DNA of 64,000 nucleotides from Methanosarcinaceae archaeon (GTDB lineage Archaea > Halobacteriota > Methanosarcinia > Methanosarcinales > Methanosarcinaceae), in the NCBI GenBank assembly GCA_020055655.1, contig JAIPUR010000002.1:1-64000 (forward strand), in the 5' to 3' direction. Both the position numbers and the translations under genes were made by a program. The notes below the pieces were generated by a model. It did no database searches. It saw only the letters and a program-made list of their open reading frames with translations, and was not told the DNA's origin. Shown here in pieces: positions 2,116 to 13,767 of the stretch (position 1 is the stretch's first letter; each line of letters begins with the position of its first letter).

Positions 2116-4332
2116 ATGTTAAATTCTATAGCTTTTGAGCATGCTCCAATTGGGATATTTATCGTTGATAAAAATGATAACTTTGTTCAGTTCAATCATG
2201 CAATGGAGGCTATTTCCGGCTTAAGTTCAAATGACGTGATAGGTTCCAATCTTTTGAATGACCTGCCCAGACATACGCTTGAAGGTGAGGCGAATTTCAA
2301 GCAATTTTATCAGGATACAAAAGTATCTCTTAAAAAAAGAACTTTGAAATCCGTGCCTATTATTACGCCTGTAGGCAAGCTCAGTTACCAGACATTGACA
2401 CTAACTCCTATTGTCAGAAACGGTAATATTTTCGATGGAATGGTAGTTTATGTTGAAGAAGTAAGTGATGTTTTACAGAAAGAAAATATATTATTTGATG
2501 AGATTCAACATGCAAAGGAATTAAAACTTTTTCACGGTGAAAATGTACCGGTAGTAGCATTTCGCTGGTCTGTTGAGGAAGGGTGGCCTGTTGAAATGGT
2601 CTCAGACAATATCTCTCAATATGGATATGATATAGATGATTTTATTTCCGGACGTTTAACGTACAGTGATATAGTTCATCCAGAGGATCTTGAAAAGCTT
2701 GCAGAGCATACAGGACATCTGAAACTTGAATCTGGCAAATATCTGTTTACTGAATATCGCATATTGGATAGTTCAGGGAATTCGGTCTGGGTAAATGAGA
2801 TATCTTTTATTGAACTGGATGAAAATGGAAATCCATCGCATTACAATGGGATTATATTTAACATCACAGATAGGTTATTAGCTGAACAGTCTCTTACAAA
2901 GGAACGTGAATATCTAAACAGCATAACTTCCAATCTTGGTGTGGGACTTTGCATAATTTCTCCTGATTACCGTACTATATGGATGAACAATTATCTGAAA
3001 AGCCTATATGGTGAGATTGAAGGCAAATTGTGCTACGTATCCTACAATAATAAATCAGAAATATGTGAGGATTGTGCAGTACGAGAGCTTATGGAAACTG
3101 GAAAAACGAAGGCGATATGCGAACAGAAAGGCGTCGACATAAATGGAAAAACGATATGGTCTCATATAGTAGCCATTCCTTTGTATGATAATGATGGAAA
3201 TGTGGCATCTTATATGGAGATGGTAGTGCCTGTGACCGAAATGAAACTGGCAGAAATGCAAGTCAGGGAAGGGAAGGCACGTATTGAGAGTATTTTGAGG
3301 GCTACACCTGTGGGGATGGGTATTGTATCAAACCGAGTTTTTGAAGAGGTCAATAATCGACTTTGTGATATGCTGGGTTATTCTCAAGAGGACCTTGTCG
3401 GGAAAAGTACGCGGGTGATATATCCAAGTGATGAGGATTATGAATATGTAGGTCGTGAAAAATACGCCCAGATGTCTAAAATGGATTATGGTTCAGTTGA
3501 GACTCGTCTTCTCTGTAGTAACGGAACGGTAATTGATGTAATACTTAGCTCCAGTCCGATCTATTCGGAATATCTGTCAAAAGATATCACTTTCACTGTG
3601 CTGGATATTACTGAGCTGAAGAATACTCAGCGAGAACTCGAGAAATATGCGGCTGAGCTTGAGAAACTAAACCAGATCAAGAATCTTTTTTCCGATATCA
3701 TTCGACATGATCTCTTAGGTCCGGCAGGAGTTGTGGGGGGCTATGCTGAAGTTTTGAAAGATATGGAGTCAGATATATCAAAGCTGGAGATCTTAGATAT
3801 AATTGAAGAAAATAATGATAATATAGTAAGGCTTATTGAAACTGCGGCCAAATATGAGAAAATAAATTCTCTTGAAGAGATAGATTTTCATGACGACGAT
3901 ATCGTAGAAATATTTAAAGACGTAGTTGAAGATCTGAAACACGCAACAAAATCTAAGAACATGTTTGTAAATGTGCTTTCAGATGGGCCTTGTTGTTCTA
4001 AAGTAAATTCTATTATAAGTGAAGCATTTGTGAATCTTCTTTCTAATGCTATCAAATACAGTCCTGAAGATGAGATCATAGATATTGGCTTCAATGATGA
4101 TGGTGCGTACTGGAAAGTCACTGTTACTGATCGTGGGGATGGCATCCCTGATGATGCCAAAAAATATGTGTTTGATCGCTTCAAGCGTGTTGATAAGAAA
4201 GGAGTAAAAGGAACTGGTCTTGGGCTTGCCATTGTTAAACGTATCATGGAGTTGCATGGTGGTGATTATGGTGTGATGGATAATCAGGAAGGTAAAGGCA
4301 GTGTGTTCTGGGTAACACTGAAAAAAATCTGA
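2116..4332 (+). CDS. Multi-PAS sensor histidine kinase (soluble)
   Basis: 738 residues with no membrane segment. In order: an N-terminal PAS (residues 1-115, starting FEHAPIGIFIVD), a PAS_3-like domain (about 145-255, VPVVAFRWS...VSDNISQYGY), a cysteine-bearing PAS (about 265-385, with Cys residues around CYVSYNNKSEICEDC), a further PAS (about 390-505), a H-box with His531 in IIRHDLLGPAG, and a HATPase domain (NLLSNAIKY, DRGDGIPDD, GTGLGLAIV). The H-box is the methanogen RHDLLxPAG variant, not the bacterial SHELRTP form. The cysteine cluster could bind a metal or haem or sense redox. No response regulator is adjacent. A paralogue follows 150 bp downstream. Confidence 0.9.
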   Translation: MLNSIAFEHAPIGIFIVDKNDNFVQFNHAMEAISGLSSNDVIGSNLLNDLPRHTLEGEANFKQFYQDTKVSLKKRTLKSVPIITPVGKLSYQTLTLTPIVRNGNIFDGMVVYVEEVSDVLQKENILFDEIQHAKELKLFHGENVPVVAFRWSVEEGWPVEMVSDNISQYGYDIDDFISGRLTYSDIVHPEDLEKLAEHTGHLKLESGKYLFTEYRILDSSGNSVWVNEISFIELDENGNPSHYNGIIFNITDRLLAEQSLTKEREYLNSITSNLGVGLCIISPDYRTIWMNNYLKSLYGEIEGKLCYVSYNNKSEICEDCAVRELMETGKTKAICEQKGVDINGKTIWSHIVAIPLYDNDGNVASYMEMVVPVTEMKLAEMQVREGKARIESILRATPVGMGIVSNRVFEEVNNRLCDMLGYSQEDLVGKSTRVIYPSDEDYEYVGREKYAQMSKMDYGSVETRLLCSNGTVIDVILSSSPIYSEYLSKDITFTVLDITELKNTQRELEKYAAELEKLNQIKNLFSDIIRHDLLGPAGVVGGYAEVLKDMESDISKLEILDIIEENNDNIVRLIETAAKYEKINSLEEIDFHDDDIVEIFKDVVEDLKHATKSKNMFVNVLSDGPCCSKVNSIISEAFVNLLSNAIKYSPEDEIIDIGFNDDGAYWKVTVTDRGDGIPDDAKKYVFDRFKRVDKKGVKGTGLGLAIVKRIMELHGGDYGVMDNQEGKGSVFWVTLKKI

Positions 4333-4481
4333 ATGAAATAATTCACTCCAGTTGGGTGGATCATGAGCTGTCATTTGATGCGACCGTGTATCTATGGAAT
4401 AATTATTTATATATAGTGTATATATGTTCATCTGGTGTACATAGCAGTGGAGATATTTACTGTTACATTTAAGGGTTAGAA

Positions 4482-6329
4482 ATGATCGAGTCAATAGTTC
4501 TGGAAAACGCTCCCTATGGGGTCTTTGCTGTCGATAAAAACGACAATTTTATTTTATTCAATACTGCAATGGAATCAATTTCCGGCTTGGATGCAAGCGA
4601 TGTGATTGGGAAGAACTTACTGCTTGATATTTCAAAAGATACTATTGATGGCGAAGGGAAATTCAGTGAAAAATTCAATCATGTGAAAAGTACTCTTAAA
4701 ACTAAATGCTACGAAGAAATACCAATGATAAACCCTATGGGGAGCCTAAGTTATCAAACGATCACATTCGTTCCGATTCTTGACAAGAGTTGCGTTTACG
4801 ATGGTATGATCCTCTATGTAGATGAGGTTAGTGATGAATTTAATCGGAAAAAGTCACTCTTTGACGATCTTCATAGGGCAAAAGAATTAGGCACGTTTTA
4901 TAGTAAGAATGTGCCTGTTGTGGCATTCCGTTGGTCTGCTGAAAAAGGCAGACCTGTTGAAATGGTTTCAGATAACATATCTCAATATGGTTACAGTGTA
5001 GAAGATTTTACTTCAGAGTGTCTTTTACATGGTGATATTATTCATCCTGATGACCTTGAAGTAATAGCAAGTTGCACAAATGAACCTGAGTCTGAGTTTG
5101 GTAAATATCTGTTCAATGAGTATCGTATATTGGATAGTTCCGGTAATGCAGTCTGGGTAAATGAGATGTCTGTTCTTGAAATGAATGAAAATGGACATCC
5201 ATCCCATTATAATGGAGTTCTTATTGATGTTAATGATAGGAAAATTGCAGAAATGGAACTTCTGGAAAGCAAGGCACGAATTGAGAGTATTTTAAAAGTC
5301 GCACCAGTTGGCCTATGTATAATTACCGGACATATATTTGAAGAAGTGAATGACAGTTTTTGTGATATGCTTGGATATTCCAGAGATGAAATAATAGGAA
5401 AAAGTACACGAGTGATATATCCAAGTAATGAGATATATGAGTACATAGGTGATGTAAAATATTCGCTGATATTGGATCATGGCATAGGAAAAGTGGAAAG
5501 CCAGCTACAGCGCAAAGATGGTAGCATCATTGATGTAATATTCAATTCCAGTCCTATATATCCCGAATTCATATCAAAAGGTGTGACATGCACTGTGCTT
5601 GATATAACTGATATGAAAAATGCTCAAAGGGATCTTGAAAAATATGCATCTGAACTCGAAAAACTGAACCAGATAAAAGATCTTTTTTCTGATATTATTC
5701 GACACGATCTTCTTAGTCCTGCAGGAATTGTAAAGGGATATGCAGAATTTTTAGAAGACATGGAGGGTGATAAAACTAAACTAAATATTCTGCATATGAT
5801 CGAAGAAAGCAATGATCGGATAATAGACCTTATTGAAAGTGCCGCTAAATATGAGAATATAAATTCCCTTGAAGAGATCGATTATCAAGATGATGATATT
5901 GTAAGCATATTTCAAAGTGTTGTATCTGATCAAAAACTTGCAATAAGGTCCAGAGGAATGTTGGTAAACATTATTTCAGATGGTCCTTGTTTTTCACGAG
6001 TGAATTCTATTGTACGCGAGGTATTTGTGAATCTTCTTTCTAATGCTATAAAATATAGTCCTGATAATGAAGTTGTGGATATTCATTTCCAGGACGATGG
6101 GTCCCATTGGAAAATTACAGTTACTGACCGTGGGGAAGGTGTTTCTGACGAGTCTAAGGAATATGTATTTGAACGGTTCAAACGTGCCGATAAAAAAGGC
6201 ATAAAAGGCACAGGTCTTGGACTTGCCATTGTCCGAAGTATTGTTGAACTACATGACGGTAAATATGGTGTAGCAGATAATCCAGAAGGAAAGGGCAGTA
6301 TGTTCTGGATCACGCTAAAAAAAAGTTAA
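4482..6329 (+). CDS. PAS sensor histidine kinase, paralogue of the preceding gene
   Basis: 615 residues, soluble, strongly similar to the upstream kinase from end to end except that the cysteine-bearing third PAS domain is missing. The remaining order is N-terminal PAS, PAS_3-like (VPVVAFRWSAEKG), PAS (about 265-380), a H-box with His408 in IIRHDLLSPAG, and HATPase (NLLSNAIKY, DRGEGVSDE, GTGLGLAIV). Tandem duplication with loss or gain of exactly one PAS is the simplest explanation. Its own promoter is likely, because the 150-bp gap holds a TTTATATATAG box. Ligand and partner are unknown. Confidence 0.9.
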   Translation: MIESIVLENAPYGVFAVDKNDNFILFNTAMESISGLDASDVIGKNLLLDISKDTIDGEGKFSEKFNHVKSTLKTKCYEEIPMINPMGSLSYQTITFVPILDKSCVYDGMILYVDEVSDEFNRKKSLFDDLHRAKELGTFYSKNVPVVAFRWSAEKGRPVEMVSDNISQYGYSVEDFTSECLLHGDIIHPDDLEVIASCTNEPESEFGKYLFNEYRILDSSGNAVWVNEMSVLEMNENGHPSHYNGVLIDVNDRKIAEMELLESKARIESILKVAPVGLCIITGHIFEEVNDSFCDMLGYSRDEIIGKSTRVIYPSNEIYEYIGDVKYSLILDHGIGKVESQLQRKDGSIIDVIFNSSPIYPEFISKGVTCTVLDITDMKNAQRDLEKYASELEKLNQIKDLFSDIIRHDLLSPAGIVKGYAEFLEDMEGDKTKLNILHMIEESNDRIIDLIESAAKYENINSLEEIDYQDDDIVSIFQSVVSDQKLAIRSRGMLVNIISDGPCFSRVNSIVREVFVNLLSNAIKYSPDNEVVDIHFQDDGSHWKITVTDRGEGVSDESKEYVFERFKRADKKGIKGTGLGLAIVRSIVELHDGKYGVADNPEGKGSMFWITLKKS

Positions 6330-7342: not shown

Positions 7343-7387
7343 ATATAATTGATACATCTGTCATGCTATAAAAAAGAGGTTAGTATC

Positions 7388-8086
7388 ATGAAACTACTTA
7401 TTAGTCCAATTAATCCTGAAGAGGCTATAGCAGCATATGAAGGCGGTGCTGACATAGTCGATGTCAAAAATCCAAAGGAAGGTTCACTCGGCGCAAATTT
7501 CCCATGGGTAATAAAGTCCGTAAAAGAATCGATCAATTCTGGAAAGCCAATCAGTGCAACCATCGGTGACTTTAACTTCAAGCCGGGTACCGCATCTCTT
7601 GCGGCGCTTGGTGCAGCAGTTGCAGGCGCAGATTACATCAAGGTCGGTTTGTATGATGTGCAAACCGAAGAACAGGCCCTGGAAATGCTCACTAATATCA
7701 CAAAAGCAGTAAAGGACTTCGACCCTGAGAAAAAGGTAGTAGCATCAGGTTACTCCGATTACGAGCGTATCAATTCCATAAATCCTCAGCTACTTCCTGC
7801 AGTTGGTCTAATGGCTGGCGTTGACGTGGTTATGGTCGATACTGGAATCAAAGACGGCCGCTCAACTTTTGAATTCATGGATGAGGAAGCACTCTCTATT
7901 TTCACAGCTGCTATTCGTGATCTAGGTCTGCTCTCAGCAATTGCCGGATCACTCATTTTTGACGACATCCCGGCGCTCAAGCGCATCCAGCCTGACATCA
8001 TAGGTGTCCGTGGTATGGTGTGTGGTGGAGACCGTAATGACGGTATCAAGGCAGAACTTGTTGAGAAGTTGAAGAACGAGATGTAA
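7388..8086 (+). CDS. mfnB: (5-formylfuran-3-yl)methyl phosphate synthase MfnB
   Basis: 232 residues from the ATG that follows a GAGGT ribosome-binding sequence. MfnB condenses two glyceraldehyde-3-phosphate molecules into the furan precursor of methanofuran, the C1 carrier of methanogenesis. Recognisable parts are MKLLISPINPEEAIAAYEGG, the lysine-bearing VDVKNPKEGSLGANFPW (Lys27-type Schiff-base region), GADYIKVGLYD, VVASGYSDY, DVVMVDTGIKDGRSTFEF and a phosphate-binding GVRGMVCGG. The length matches the family (formerly DUF556). The rest of the mfn pathway is not in the window. Confidence 0.93.
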   Translation: MKLLISPINPEEAIAAYEGGADIVDVKNPKEGSLGANFPWVIKSVKESINSGKPISATIGDFNFKPGTASLAALGAAVAGADYIKVGLYDVQTEEQALEMLTNITKAVKDFDPEKKVVASGYSDYERINSINPQLLPAVGLMAGVDVVMVDTGIKDGRSTFEFMDEEALSIFTAAIRDLGLLSAIAGSLIFDDIPALKRIQPDIIGVRGMVCGGDRNDGIKAELVEKLKNEM

Positions 8087-8687: not shown

Positions 8688-9062
8688 ATGGGAATGGCAC
8701 AAAGAAACAATATTCCAATTTTCGTATCATTTTTAGTTGTTAACACCATATTTGTAGGAATAGTAGGCGCTATGATTAATGATGATACTTCTGGTGTAGG
8801 AAACGAACAAGATGTATTAGCTAGTTTTTTGTTAAAAATTGGAGACAAAGACAAAGAACTTCTGTTTAAGTATGTTGAAGAATCTAACCTATCCGAAACG
8901 GATAAAATAGATTTGAATAATAAAATGCAGGATGCTTGGAACAGATATCCTGACAATACTGAGAAAGACTACCTTGCAGCTAATAAAGCACTAGGTATTA
9001 TGGTAAATACTGTTGAAAAAGAAAGAGAAATACAGAGGCAAAAGGGGATTAGAAAATCATGA
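8688..9062 (+). CDS. Membrane-anchored or exported hypothetical protein upstream of the protease
   Basis: 124 residues. A hydrophobic N-terminal segment (residues 8-27, NIPIFVSFLVVNTIFVGIVG) is a signal peptide or signal anchor. It is followed by a mostly helical, charged region (DKDKELLFKYVEESNL, then an EKEREIQRQKG tail). A GGTGAAATT ribosome-binding sequence supports the ATG. Its 3' end overlaps the open frame of the next ORF in a different phase, across an A-rich stretch. It may be a separate translationally coupled gene, or it may supply the missing export signal of the protease through a frameshift. I recognise no family. Confidence 0.65.
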   Translation: MGMAQRNNIPIFVSFLVVNTIFVGIVGAMINDDTSGVGNEQDVLASFLLKIGDKDKELLFKYVEESNLSETDKIDLNNKMQDAWNRYPDNTEKDYLAANKALGIMVNTVEKEREIQRQKGIRKS

Positions 9063-10245
9063 GTTCATTTTAAGTTTGCACAATGTGAGTACATCCACCT
9101 ATAGTGTAAAAGAAGATAAAGGCCTAATAGAAATAAAAGGTAAATCTCCAGTATTGTCATCTGATGAGCAAAAAAAGAATTGTTATTCTAACCTGCATAC
9201 GGTGGATAAGGCACTTCACGAAGATATGAAGCAGTATCTTTACCCCAATGGACCAGTAATAAGATATGGCTGGAATATCGAAGGTTACTATACTGTAGTT
9301 TTTTATGAAAATATGGAAATTAGTCAATCGCAAATAAATGAGATTTATGATTTAATTAGCGAAACGGCAATTAAAACATCAGCTGATGGTGTTACAGTTG
9401 CATTTCTAAAAGATGACTTTTCCAAGGAAGAGGTTTACGCTGGTTATGATAATAAAGAACGACCGGTCATAGGGGCAATAAAGATTTCTGCTTTTAAGAA
9501 TTTAAGTGTAAAATCTGCCACACTAGGTTTTCCTGTAAAAGATACCAATGACAATAAAGGGTACGTAACAGCTAAACATTTTGCTAGTATTTTGGGTTTA
9601 TATATATATCAACCAAGCATTTCAGTATTAAATAAAATCGGAGAAGTAGACTCATTAGGAGGGTCTAATGCAGATGCTTCTTTTATTGAATATAATGATG
9701 TAAGTCCCGAGATTCATGTAGGGCATGGTATAACCGTAGATCTCGAAGACTATATCGCATGTACTCCTACGAGTTCGTGGATCAATAAAGATGTCCGTAT
9801 GTCTGGGACAAACACTGGCCCGGTTACCGGATATATAGATGGTATAAATCATATCTCTACTGTCAATGGAAATACATATTATAATCAAGTGACTGCAACT
9901 TACGATAGCCAAAATGGGGATAGTGGTGCACCAGTATATTGTTTCGTAGATTCTGAACTAAGAATAATAGGAATACATAAAGGCAGTACAAGCACTCATG
10001 CAATATTTTCAGCTCTTAAGTATATTTATCAAGATTTAGATGTACTTCCAATCAAAAAAGTAGATTATCCAAAAGGAGATTCCAACAATGATGGAGTTGT
10101 AGATTTCATTGATTTTGTCGATTTTGCAGCTACTTATAATCAGAACGCTTTTGCTATTCCGTTTGACTCAACTTTTGACTTTAATGACGATGGAGTGGTT
10201 GACTTCATTGATCATGTAGAATTTGCAGGGTTGTATCAAAGTTGA
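9013..10245 (+). CDS. Chymotrypsin-like serine protease with C-terminal dockerin-like calcium repeats
   Basis: A 410-residue open frame. Residues ~45-135 are a domain shared with the next gene (MKQYLYPNG...YYTVVFYEN). Residues ~150-345 look like a small streptogrisin-type trypsin fold. The inferred triad is His189 (VTAKHF), Asp221 (NADASFI) and Ser304 (NGDSGAPV). The C-terminus has two EF-hand-like loops starting near Asp356 and Asp389 (DGVVDFIDFVDFA, DGVVDFIDHVEFA), spaced 33 residues apart like a type-I dockerin. The frame opens at TTG 9013 with no clear ribosome-binding site. Later GTG/TTG codons are possible. No signal peptide is present in this frame, which is odd for such a protein and suggests a frameshift with the upstream ORF. 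Confidence 0.75.
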   Translation: MKKKEKYRGKRGLENHEFILSLHNVSTSTYSVKEDKGLIEIKGKSPVLSSDEQKKNCYSNLHTVDKALHEDMKQYLYPNGPVIRYGWNIEGYYTVVFYENMEISQSQINEIYDLISETAIKTSADGVTVAFLKDDFSKEEVYAGYDNKERPVIGAIKISAFKNLSVKSATLGFPVKDTNDNKGYVTAKHFASILGLYIYQPSISVLNKIGEVDSLGGSNADASFIEYNDVSPEIHVGHGITVDLEDYIACTPTSSWINKDVRMSGTNTGPVTGYIDGINHISTVNGNTYYNQVTATYDSQNGDSGAPVYCFVDSELRIIGIHKGSTSTHAIFSALKYIYQDLDVLPIKKVDYPKGDSNNDGVVDFIDFVDFAATYNQNAFAIPFDSTFDFNDDGVVDFIDHVEFAGLYQS

Positions 10246-10257
10246 AAATTCAAAGAT

Positions 10258-10285
10258 TGTAGATGGCAAAGTCATCTACATTTTT
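10258..10285 (+). terminator. Stem-loop with T-tract after the protease gene
   Basis: TGTAGATG-GCAAAGT-CATCTACA forms a perfect 8-bp stem with a 7-nt loop, followed at once by TTTTTATTG. It lies 13 bp after the protease stop and before the next gene. This layout fits intrinsic-type termination or mRNA 3'-end protection. Confidence 0.6.
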
Positions 10286-10326
10286 ATTGTTTATCTTAGT
10301 AATGAGAGTAGGGGGTAATAATATAT

Positions 10327-11280
10327 ATGAAACACAGACTTAATGTTGTATTGCTGACATTGATTCTTTTAATAGTAACTACAGCCACTGTTCAAGCTTC
10401 TTCTGAGGAAACAGAATATGAGTATTACTTTGGCATGTACACTCTGAATGAGAATACGATTGAAAAATATGGACGTCTTCCATCACTTGAAACAGAAGAT
10501 CAAATGGAGGATTGGCAGACAGAGTTAGAGATGTTCAGCGATGCGGTAAAAGATGATCTCGCAGCTCAGTATATGTACCCTAACGGTGAAGTATTCACAT
10601 GTGGCAGCAATTCTGATGGATATTTTGTAGTGCTGTTCCGGAATGACAGCATTGAAAAACAGCATCTGGATGAAATATACTCATTCCTAGAAAATGCTGC
10701 TGAAGATATGAACATACAAAATATTCCTGTTGAATTTGGGTATGGTCTTTACATTCAGAATTTGAGTGGTATAACCTTAACAGAAGAATACATGAAAAGT
10801 GGAGACCACGTACGTAGAGAATATCGTTTTTATCGTCGTAACGACACTCTAGCATCTTATGGTGAAGCGCCTGAATTTGATAATTTAGAAGAATGGGGTG
10901 ATTGGTATAACGAATTGGGTGTTATTACTAACGAAGCTGGTGAAGCAATCTTCGAAGATAATGAAATATCCCAAACAAATTGGATAACTGGACTAGGTCC
11001 AGCTGTTCCAGGGGAAATTGATATTGGCATTTATAGGAATCTGACCAACGAAGAAAAAATGTTAATCATCCCTCAAATATATGATATATTTGAGATGGAA
11101 GGAAATAAGAGAAATATAACAAATATTCCAGTTATTTTTTATGATGCAGATTATGAGATAGAAGATAATGAGATAGAAGATAATGAGATAGAAGATAATC
11201 CCATTCCAGGCTTTTCAGCTTTGAATCTGCTAGCTGTTATATCACTTGTATTGACATTACTTTTGGTTAACAGACGGTAG
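10327..11280 (+). CDS. Exported surface protein with PGF-CTERM anchor, related to the protease N-terminal domain
   Basis: 317 residues with a clear signal peptide (residues ~4-24, ending VQASS). It carries two related domains: EKYGRLPSLETEDQ...AAQYMYPNGEVF...DEIYSFLENAA (about 45-140) and SYGEAPEFDNLEEW...NLTNEEKMLIIPQIYDIF (about 175-270). The first matches the N-terminal domain of the adjacent protease. Next comes an acidic linker with three EIEDN repeats, then IPGFSALNLL, a hydrophobic helix and a terminal RR. This is the pattern of PGF-CTERM proteins, which archaeosortase A is known to process and lipid-anchor. It is probably a cell-surface partner, inhibitor or propeptide-like docking protein for the protease (inference). 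Confidence 0.8.
   Translation: MKHRLNVVLLTLILLIVTTATVQASSEETEYEYYFGMYTLNENTIEKYGRLPSLETEDQMEDWQTELEMFSDAVKDDLAAQYMYPNGEVFTCGSNSDGYFVVLFRNDSIEKQHLDEIYSFLENAAEDMNIQNIPVEFGYGLYIQNLSGITLTEEYMKSGDHVRREYRFYRRNDTLASYGEAPEFDNLEEWGDWYNELGVITNEAGEAIFEDNEISQTNWITGLGPAVPGEIDIGIYRNLTNEEKMLIIPQIYDIFEMEGNKRNITNIPVIFYDADYEIEDNEIEDNEIEDNPIPGFSALNLLAVISLVLTLLLVNRR
11155..11199 (+). repeat. Three tandem 15-bp repeats coding EIEDN
   Basis: GAGATAGAAGATAAT occurs three times head to tail without mismatch. It encodes an acidic spacer just before the PGF membrane anchor. Identical DNA copies point to recent slippage, so the linker length probably varies between strains. Confidence 0.9.
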
Positions 11281-11523: not shown

Positions 11524-13767
11524 TTGACTGAAGAGATTACCGTAACTGTTGGCCAGGCGTATCCTCGTGATGCGGGAAGGTGTATTGCCAGACTTGATAA
11601 GGATTTCATGGAAAAAATATGTGTCATCAGCGGTGATATTGTTGAAATAAAGGGCAAAGGCAAGGAAAAGTGCTATGCCATTGTCTGGCCGGGTTATCTT
11701 GACGATTCAGGAAAAGATGTGATAAGGATCGATGGGAACCTCAGGAACAATGCAAAAGTGAGCATTGATGATAAGGTGACTGCGAGGAAAGTATCGGTTC
11801 AGGAAGCAGAAAGAATTGTACTTGCACCAACAAGGGAAACCACTCTTGTCGGAGGCTCACGTTTCATACTTCGAATATTGGAAGGCCGTCCGGTTTCCAA
11901 GGGTCAGAATGTTCGTGTGGAAACCGTTAATAATCCCATATCTTTTGCAGTTATGTCTACCAGTCCACAGGGGCCTGTTATTGTTACGCGGAACACTCAG
12001 ATACAGCTTCGTGAAAGTGCTGTGACCCAGGATGGGGAGACCGGGCATATAACATACGAGGATATTGGTGGCCTTAAACGGGAACTGGGCCTTGTAAGGG
12101 AGATGATAGAACTCCCTCTAAAGCACCCTGAGCTCTTCCAGAAACTGGCTGTTGACCCTCCAAAAGGTGTTTTACTTTATGGCCCTCCCGGCACTGGTAA
12201 GACTATGATCGCAAGGGCGGTTGCAAGTGAAAGCGATGCTAATTTCATTTCTGTCAGCGGTCCCGAAATTGTATCCAAATATTATGGTGAAAGTGAGCAG
12301 AAGATACGGGAGATATTCGAGGAAGCAGAAAAGAATTCACCCTCTATTATTTTCATAGATGAAATTGATTCCATCGCACCAAAGCGTGATGAAGTTGTAG
12401 GTGAGATGGAACGCAGGATAGTTGCACAGATGCTATCCCTTATGGACGGTCTGGCTTCAAGGGGCAAAGTCGTTGTTATAGCTGCAACGAACCGACCCAA
12501 TTCCATTGATGAAGCTTTGCGCCGTGGCGGGCGTTTTGACAGGGAAATAGAGGTTGGGATTCCTGATTGTGAGGGCAGGCTGCAAATTCTTTACGTTCAT
12601 ACAAGGGGAATGCCTCTGGAAAAAGATCTCGATCTTCAGGAAATTGCCAACGTAACTCATGGTTTTGTTGGAGCAGATCTCTCATCCTTGTGTAAAGAAG
12701 CTGCAATGCATGCTCTGCGCAGAAGGCTTCCAGAGCTTAAGATGGATGATGTTGATGATGAAATTCCTCCGGAGTTCATGGATAAACTGGAGGTTACTCG
12801 TAAAGATTTCGATGATGCTTTAAAGAATATAGAACCTTCTGCAATGCGCGAGGTATTTGTGGAAGTTCCCCGGGTAAAATGGGATGATATAGGCGGTCTT
12901 GATTCTGCAAAACAGGAACTCATCGAAGCTGTAGAGTGGCCTTTGAAATTCCCCGAGATATTTGAGGCTGTGAATACAAAAGCTCCTCGCGGTATAATGT
13001 TATTTGGTCCACCGGGAACTGGGAAAACCATGCTTGTAAAAGCAGTTGCAACGGAAAGCGACGCCAATTTCATTAGCATAAAAGGTCCGGAACTTTTGAG
13101 CCGTTATGTGGGAGAATCCGAACGTGCTGTACGTGAGACATTTCGTAAGGCAAAACAGGCAGCTCCAACTGTTATATTCTTTGACGAGATCGATTCAATG
13201 GCATCAGAGAGAGGTTCCAGTGTAGATGCACATGCTACAGAGCGTGTTGTAAGCCAGATACTTACAGAGATCGATGGTGTTGAGGAGCTCAAGGATGTTG
13301 TAATAATTGCGGCCACTAACCGTCCTGATATTGTGGATCCGGCTCTGCTTCGACCAGGACGCTTTGACCGTCTGATCTATGTACGCTTTCCTGATAAGGA
13401 AAGTAGGGAAATGATATTCTATATCCATGCTAATGGCAAACCTCTGGCCGATGATGTGAATATTCATGAGCTTGCTGAGGTTACTGAAGGATATGTTGGT
13501 GCAGATATTGAATCTATATGTCGCGAAGCCTCAATGCTGGCGCTACGTGAGATAATAACTCCAGGAATTGACAGAAAAGAAGCCCTGGAAAAAGCATCTG
13601 CCATTAAAGTGACAATGGATCATTTCCGTAAAGCTATAAAAAGAGTAAAACCAACCACATCTCATACTGCTATGACATTTTACGAACAGTCGGCAGAGGC
13701 ATTTGCAAGATATGCAGCTAACGAGGATGGGCGTGTGTCTGATGCGGATGAGAGGGCGTATCAGTAA
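11524..13767 (+). CDS. CDC48/VCP-type double AAA+ ATPase
   Basis: 747 residues with the full VAT/Cdc48 plan. There is an N-terminal double-psi-barrel domain (residues 1-195), D1 with Walker A GPPGTGKT at 220-227 and [14 protein letters not shown], and D2 with GPPGTGKT at 495-502 and [15 protein letters not shown], each followed by arginine-finger regions (RRGGRFDR and LRPGRFDR). It unfolds proteins for the proteasome and remodels complexes in the cytoplasm. The start is TTG, chosen because GAGGTG lies 7 nt upstream and the protein then begins [15 protein letters not shown] as expected. It is apparently monocistronic. Confidence 0.95.

What the first reader, a model, noticed from the sequence alone, without database searches (positions are those of the whole stretch)
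8688..11280. Accessory locus: dockerin-tailed serine protease with an anchored partner sharing its N-terminal domain
The protease (triad His189/Asp221/Ser304) has two calcium-loop repeats like a dockerin, a module known from cellulosomes and rare in methanogens. The next gene encodes a signal-peptide, PGF-anchored protein with two copies of a domain (YLYPNG...YYTVVFYEN type) that also forms the protease N-terminus. Together they could be a surface-held protease system: one secreted enzyme and one anchored docking protein, inhibitor or immunity-like partner. I know of no described system with this make-up.
Basis: partly seen in the sequence, partly recalled or inferred. Interest (0 to 1): 0.8.

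Follow-up and report, generated by a model that had tools for sequence, protein, structure and literature searches.

The report
Methanogen protease with anchored pro-domain partner
A methanogen gene pair encodes a secreted, digestive-type serine protease and a membrane-anchored protein built from copies of the protease's own leading (pro-) domain, probably so that the cell can hold its own protease in check at the surface; the pair recurs across methanogens and appears to be undescribed.

Summary
Window 9013-10245 encodes an alpha-lytic/streptogrisin-type S1 protease (His189/Asp221/Ser304 invariant in 11 homologues) with a dockerin-like tail. 10327-11280 encodes a signal-peptide, PGF-type-anchored protein with two copies of the ~98-residue domain that forms the protease's N-terminus. 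It also missed that the shared domain sits where S1 proteases of this type carry their pro-domain.

The pair is a recurrent methanogen system. In Methanosarcinaceae, 23 of 23 assessable proteases have a same-strand partner of this domain plus anchor directly downstream. In one genome the protease lacks the domain and an anchored one is encoded just upstream. Partner genes also stand alone in many genomes.

Best explanation: the domain is a pro-domain (foldase and inhibitor), and the partner is a trans-acting, surface-held copy that restrains the protease, analogous to stand-alone propeptide inhibitors such as SUB1-ProM. Inhibition itself is untested. The partner has no cohesin; real cohesins, one fused to two of these domains, lie elsewhere in the genome. 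Neither Pfam, NCBIfam nor PDB sequences recognise the domain. New variant of a known kind.

The parts
8688..9059 (+). 5' part of the protease gene: signal-peptide/hydrophobic N-terminus and a helical region (ORF1, 124 aa)
   Evidence: Aligns to the N-terminal half of single-ORF homologue L026 (score 175; shuffled 33 +/- 5)
9035..9090 (+). region of the +1 frameshift between ORF1 and ORF2 (near CAAAAGGGGATTAGAAAA)
   Evidence: The fused reading aligns continuously with L026 (score 460 vs 175 and 304 for the two pieces). Real mutation, programmed shift or assembly error not distinguishable
9118..9405 (+). shared ~98-aa domain at the protease N-terminus, in the pro-domain position
   Evidence: Profile E 6e-28; beta-alpha-beta-beta-alpha-beta in the AlphaFold model; 15-28 residues before the mature-domain start in 31 homologues
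9451..10056 (+). S1 serine protease domain, alpha-lytic/streptogrisin-like
   Evidence: Profile hits alpha-lytic protease E 3e-10; Foldseek E 3e-14, TM 0.83 to 2SFA
9577..9579 (+). catalytic His189 codon
   Evidence: Invariant in A1
9673..9675 (+). catalytic Asp221 codon
   Evidence: Invariant in A1
9922..9924 (+). catalytic Ser304 codon (GDSG)
   Evidence: Invariant in A1
10072..10242 (+). dockerin-like tail with two calcium loops
   Evidence: 54% identical to the tail of the 1184-aa protein at C11; profile reaches Pfam-recognised dockerins
10327..11280 (+). anchored partner gene (317 aa)
   Evidence: ORF; homologue directly downstream of nearly every related Methanosarcinaceae protease
10327..10401 (+). 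partner signal peptide
   Evidence: Hydrophobic N-terminus MKHRLNVVLLTLILLIVTTATVQAS
10450..10737 (+). partner shared domain, copy 1
   Evidence: Profile E 1e-29; AlphaFold pLDDT 89, pTM 0.81, same beta-alpha-beta-beta-alpha-beta order as the protease copy
10840..11139 (+). partner shared domain, copy 2
   Evidence: Profile E 4e-20
11200..11277 (+). PGF-type C-terminal anchor (PIPGFSALNLLAVISLVLTLLLVNRR)
   Evidence: Signature, hydrophobic span and basic tail by eye; weak NCBIfam CTERM match below cut-off; archaeosortase A in genome

Best explanation
The shared domain is the pro-domain of an alpha-lytic/streptogrisin-like secreted protease: it helps the enzyme fold and inhibits it until it is removed. 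The downstream gene encodes a trans-acting version of the same domain, in one or two copies, fixed to the cell surface by an archaeosortase-processed or lipid anchor. It binds the mature protease at the producer's surface and keeps it inactive there (self-protection), so activity is confined to protease that has left the cell. In this species the protease also carries a dockerin that could hold it on cohesin-bearing surface proteins, one of which itself carries two of these domains. Shown: domain sharing, fold class, domain position, gene order, anchor architecture, triad. Inferred: pro-domain role, binding, inhibition, self-protection, docking.
For: (a) The shared domain ends a short way (15-28, mostly 15-16, residues) before the mature N-terminus, placed by alignment to residue 2 of mature alpha-lytic protease, i.e. 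in the pro-region position. (b) Proteases of other families (f16, f27, f26) carry the domain without any adjacent partner, so the cis role looks older. (c) Conserved pair: 23/23 assessable Methanosarcinaceae loci with a cis domain, plus 3 in this genome and 2/2 in family f8, have a same-strand partner directly downstream, sometimes 2-3 in tandem. (d) Partner and protease copies are sisters in several loci (L025 83% identical; L033; L113; window protease with L026), indicating repeated exchange. (e) In G006 the protease has no cis domain; an anchored domain protein lies 17 bp upstream (L165). (f) Asymmetry: 0 of 40 proteases but 47 of 55 partners/orphans have a C-terminal hydrophobic anchor; 41 have exact PGF. 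(g) Disrupted proteases beside intact partners about 7 times (window; C44; L033, L035, L054, L068, L142), the reverse in none unless one in-frame TAG is a true stop. (h) Precedent: SUB1-ProM, a syntenic stand-alone propeptide-like protein, inhibits its neighbour protease (PMC6993865).
Against: The domain matches no known pro-domain by sequence or fold (best Foldseek E 0.067, alpha-lytic Pro not among the top 50). About 49 of the 82 phylum genomes with the domain have no strong protease hit, so it may have other roles. Cognate identity is only modestly above non-cognate (0.38 vs 0.28). No complex was modelled. The window's own protease reading frame is interrupted.
Confidence: 0.6

Rival explanations
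1. The shared domain is a surface-binding module (for example for the S-layer or a cell-wall polymer) that keeps both the protease and the anchored protein in the same layer; it is not a pro-domain and the partner is not an inhibitor.
For: Many genomes carry anchored domain proteins with no protease nearby, some with ~250 extra residues or a cohesin.
Against: Anchored proteins need no second surface-binding module. The domain is tightly placed before the mature protease and absent in cis when supplied by a neighbouring gene (L165). A partner whose sequence is a near copy of its protease's leader and domain (L025, 83%) fits an intermolecular role better.
Confidence: 0.16
2. The partner is an anchored foldase that matures the protease at the membrane rather than restraining it afterwards (activation in trans).
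For: G006 proteases lack a cis domain and have a neighbouring anchored one; pro-regions of alpha-lytic-type enzymes catalyse folding (PMC2829044).
Against: Most proteases already have a cis copy, so a second foldase would be redundant; orphan partners persist without proteases.
Confidence: 0.14
3. The window copy is a decayed locus: the protease is inactivated by the frameshift and only the anchored partner still works, as a spare inhibitor.
For: The frameshift separates the signal peptide from the catalytic part; the paralogue at C44 is also broken while its partner is intact; a third partner at C47 has no protease.
Against: The rest of the reading frame, triad and dockerin are intact; an assembly error or programmed shift at the A/G run cannot be excluded.
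Confidence: 0.35
4. The partner is a docking receptor for the dockerin-tailed protease.
For: The protease has a dockerin-like tail; the partner is anchored.
Against: No cohesin in the partner; the aligned homologous proteases have no dockerin yet keep the partner.
Confidence: 0.04

Closest known systems
Alpha-lytic protease / streptogrisin-type S1 peptidases with N-terminal pro-region
   Same: Catalytic triad, GDSG, two-barrel S1 fold, an alpha/beta domain directly before the mature N-terminus
   Different: The N-terminal domain is unrelated in sequence to Pfam pro-domain families and has no Foldseek match; archaeal; some copies have no cis domain; here a dockerin tail
SUB1-ProM (Plasmodium), a stand-alone propeptide-like inhibitor encoded beside its protease genes (PMC6993865); also crammer and CTLA-2alpha (family I29)
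   Same: A separate gene made of a protease's pro-domain, in a syntenic neighbouring position
   Different: S1 rather than subtilase or papain-like protease; archaeal; membrane-anchored; one or two domain copies; many paralogues and orphans; inhibition not yet shown
Cohesin-dockerin systems of archaea (ANME, Archaeoglobus; PMC9012536)
   Same: The protease tail is a dockerin-like module; the genome has cohesin proteins, including one with three cohesins plus a fasciclin domain
   Different: The partner in this locus has no cohesin; the dockerin is an add-on in this species; the pair normally works without it
Secreted enzyme/immunity pairs (bacteriocin-type)
   Same: Toxin-like secreted hydrolase, adjacent membrane-held cognate, orphan 'immunity' genes, enzyme decay with partner retention
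   Different: No target, killing or protection shown

Membership tests
S1 peptidase (alpha-lytic/streptogrisin group) | Catalytic His-Asp-Ser with GDSG motif | tested here: met
   Invariant in 11 homologues; aligned to alpha-lytic protease
S1 peptidase (alpha-lytic/streptogrisin group) | Chymotrypsin-like fold | tested here: met
   AlphaFold model; Foldseek E 3e-14, TM 0.83
S1 peptidase (alpha-lytic/streptogrisin group) | Recognised by curated trypsin-type family models | tested here: not met
   Window and homologues below cut-offs in Pfam and NCBIfam
Pro_Al_protease / known S1 pro-domains | Position directly upstream of the mature domain | tested here: met
   15-28 residues before the mature start
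Pro_Al_protease / known S1 pro-domains | Sequence or fold homology to known pro-domains | tested here: not met
   No Pfam or PDB sequence match; Foldseek not significant
Pro_Al_protease / known S1 pro-domains | Removed on activation; catalyses folding; inhibits | not testable with these tools
   Needs biochemistry
Stand-alone propeptide-like inhibitor | Same domain as the pro-domain of an adjacent protease | tested here: met
Stand-alone propeptide-like inhibitor | Inhibits the cognate protease | not testable with these tools
Type I dockerin | Two 12-residue Ca-binding loops, homology to dockerins | tested here: met
   Both loops intact; profile reaches Pfam-recognised dockerins
Type I dockerin | Pfam gathering score | tested here: not met
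   12.6 vs 22.9 bits
Type I dockerin | Cohesin partner in the genome | tested here: met
   Six Pfam cohesins over cut-off in four proteins; binding untested
PGF-CTERM surface protein | PGF signature, hydrophobic span, basic tail, archaeosortase A in genome | tested here: inconclusive
   Architecture present and ArtA E 3e-79, but anchor matches are below Pfam/NCBIfam cut-offs
Anti-phage defence system | Match to known defence proteins | tested here: not met
   No PADLOC match

The most novel reading that the evidence does not exclude
Methanogens use families of secreted proteases against neighbouring cells, and the anchored pro-domain proteins are immunity proteins, with orphan copies guarding against rivals' enzymes: a proteolytic toxin-immunity system in archaea in which immunity evolved from the toxin's own pro-domain.
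Probability: 0.22. Interest if true: 0.85.

Novelty: new variant of a known kind. Interest (0 to 1): 0.6.

Why it matters
It adds an unannotated domain family found in 82 of 393 sampled genomes of the phylum and gives a concrete function hypothesis for a large set of hypothetical surface proteins of methanogens. If the partner inhibits, it is a membrane-held, operon-encoded propeptide inhibitor in archaea, and it makes testable whether methanogens use secreted proteases for feeding, envelope turnover or antagonism.

Tried and rejected
Partner as a docking protein: no cohesin. Shared domain as a known family: no Pfam or NCBIfam match, no PDB sequence match, no significant Foldseek match. Mobile or viral origin: no relative in viral contigs or plasmids; no defence-system match; no Rfam element at the locus. 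A strict co-evolution signal between cognate copies was looked for and is weak. Literature searches for a methanogen secreted serine protease, streptogrisin in methanogens, or an archaeal protease-immunity pair returned nothing; the library holds open-licence papers only. Two partner genes and one further one seemed broken but have a single in-frame TAG, possibly pyrrolysine, so they were not counted as decayed.

Full report
What is in the window. Between a gene that looks like mfnB (7349-8086; my reading, not searched) and a CDC48/VAT-type ATPase gene (11524-13767), three open frames lie on the + strand. The second (9013-10245, 410 aa) is a serine protease. The third (10327-11280, 317 aa) has a signal peptide, two copies of a domain also found at the protease N-terminus, and a PGF-type anchor. 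The first (8688-9062, 124 aa) is the missing beginning of the protease. It aligns to the N-terminal half of a single-ORF homologue in another genome of the genus (L026: score 175 against 33 +/- 5 for shuffled copies), and the two window pieces joined align continuously (460). The window gene therefore carries a +1 frameshift around 9035-9090. Whether this is real decay, a programmed shift or an assembly error cannot be told here.

The enzyme. His189, Asp221 and Ser304 are invariant in 11 homologues. A profile of the family finds alpha-lytic protease (3ure, E 3e-10) and streptogrisins. The AlphaFold model (mean pLDDT 73) has an S1 body with TM 0.83 to 2SFA and 1HPG. The tail has two canonical calcium loops. 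Pfam scores it below cut-off, but it belongs to a genus-specific dockerin type ('VDFIDFVxFAxxYxS') whose profile reaches Pfam-recognised dockerins.

The shared domain. A profile of ~98 residues matches the protease once and the partner twice (6e-28, 1e-29, 4e-20). The single-sequence result is already 2.8e-10. The partner's first copy folds confidently as beta-alpha-beta-beta-alpha-beta (pLDDT 89, pTM 0.81), and the protease copy has the same order of elements. There is no Pfam or NCBIfam match, no PDB sequence match and no significant Foldseek match. Its end lies 15-28, mostly 15-16, residues before the mature protease start in 31 homologues, so it occupies the pro-region position of alpha-lytic-type enzymes.

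How widespread. The domain is in 82 of 393 genomes sampled in the phylum, 19 genera, often in many copies. By my count, 35 of the sampled genomes have a strong protease hit (E below 1e-20), and 33 of these have the domain; because the protease itself usually contains the domain this is partly by construction. About 49 genomes have the domain without such a protease. Named hosts are Methanolobus, Methanococcoides, Methanohalophilus and Methanosarcina; a Thermococcus MAG has a divergent protease.

Gene order. In 40 fetched protease loci, all 23 assessable Methanosarcinaceae copies with a cis domain have a same-strand anchored partner directly downstream, some with two or three in tandem. Two of two in family f8 and one in f16 also do; f26, f27, f9 and f19 do not, although most of those proteases have the cis domain. 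The cis role thus looks older than the partner. In G006 the arrangement is reversed: the protease has no cis domain (in L165 a signal peptide leads straight into the mature domain) and an anchored, interrupted copy lies just upstream (17 bp in L165, about 90 bp in L166). In L025 the partner is an 83% copy of its protease's domain, with the enzyme replaced by an anchor, and the tree mixes the two classes in several places. None of 40 proteases but 47 of 55 partners or orphans end in a hydrophobic anchor; 41 have exact PGF. One partner (L033) instead shows a lipobox-like N-terminus.

In this genome. Besides the window pair there is an intact pair on C11 (150 kb), a broken protease with an intact partner on C44, and a lone partner on C47. 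Archaeosortase A is present. Cohesins occur in several proteins, including a three-cohesin plus fasciclin protein and a cohesin + two shared domains + PGF protein, both near a 1184-aa dockerin protein. That neighbourhood recurs in at least two relatives (L186, L187).

Mechanism. The most economical reading is a pro-domain that folds and inhibits the enzyme in cis, plus an anchored copy that restrains it in trans at the producer's surface. SUB1-ProM is a direct functional precedent in another protease family (PMC6993865); pro-region foldase action in alpha-lytic protease is documented (PMC2829044). Disrupted proteases next to intact partners (about seven cases by eye; the reverse in none if an in-frame TAG is read through) fit a harmful enzyme and a protective partner, but the sample is small and includes MAGs. 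Binding and inhibition are not shown.

Verdict. A real, recurrent and apparently undescribed protease/anchored-pro-domain pair. The window copy is an atypical member, with a dockerin added and a frameshift in the enzyme gene.

Noticed in passing
L092 982-2082, L097 1000-2082, L132 5380-6450: Three partner genes (L092 and L097 orthologous; host genus inferred to be Methanococcoides) have one in-frame TAG and an otherwise intact frame. This may be pyrrolysine rather than decay; in L132 a homologue has Tyr at that place.
   Followed up: partly
L022 2385-10734 (own genome C11): Three-cohesin plus fasciclin protein, 1184-aa dockerin protein and a cohesin + two shared domains + PGF protein in one cluster: an archaeal scaffoldin-like surface system; part of it recurs in L186 and L187.
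   Followed up: partly
L165 3675-5997; L166 4605-6339 (G006): Proteases without a cis pro-domain, each with an anchored, interrupted copy of the domain encoded just upstream: a natural trans arrangement.
   Followed up: yes
L174, L175, L180, L189: Orphan anchored proteins with about 250 extra residues before the shared domain and no protease nearby; function of the extra part unknown.
   Followed up: no
window 2116-6329: Two adjacent, similar PAS-type sensor histidine kinase genes (738 and 615 aa), apparently a tandem duplication.
   Followed up: no
L063 5989-7101 (Thermococcus MAG): Divergent member of the protease family with an alignable N-terminal domain that the profile misses; the next gene is a different small secreted-type protein.
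   Followed up: partly
L019 5530-7458: Transposase-like genes directly upstream of the intact protease pair on C11.
   Followed up: no
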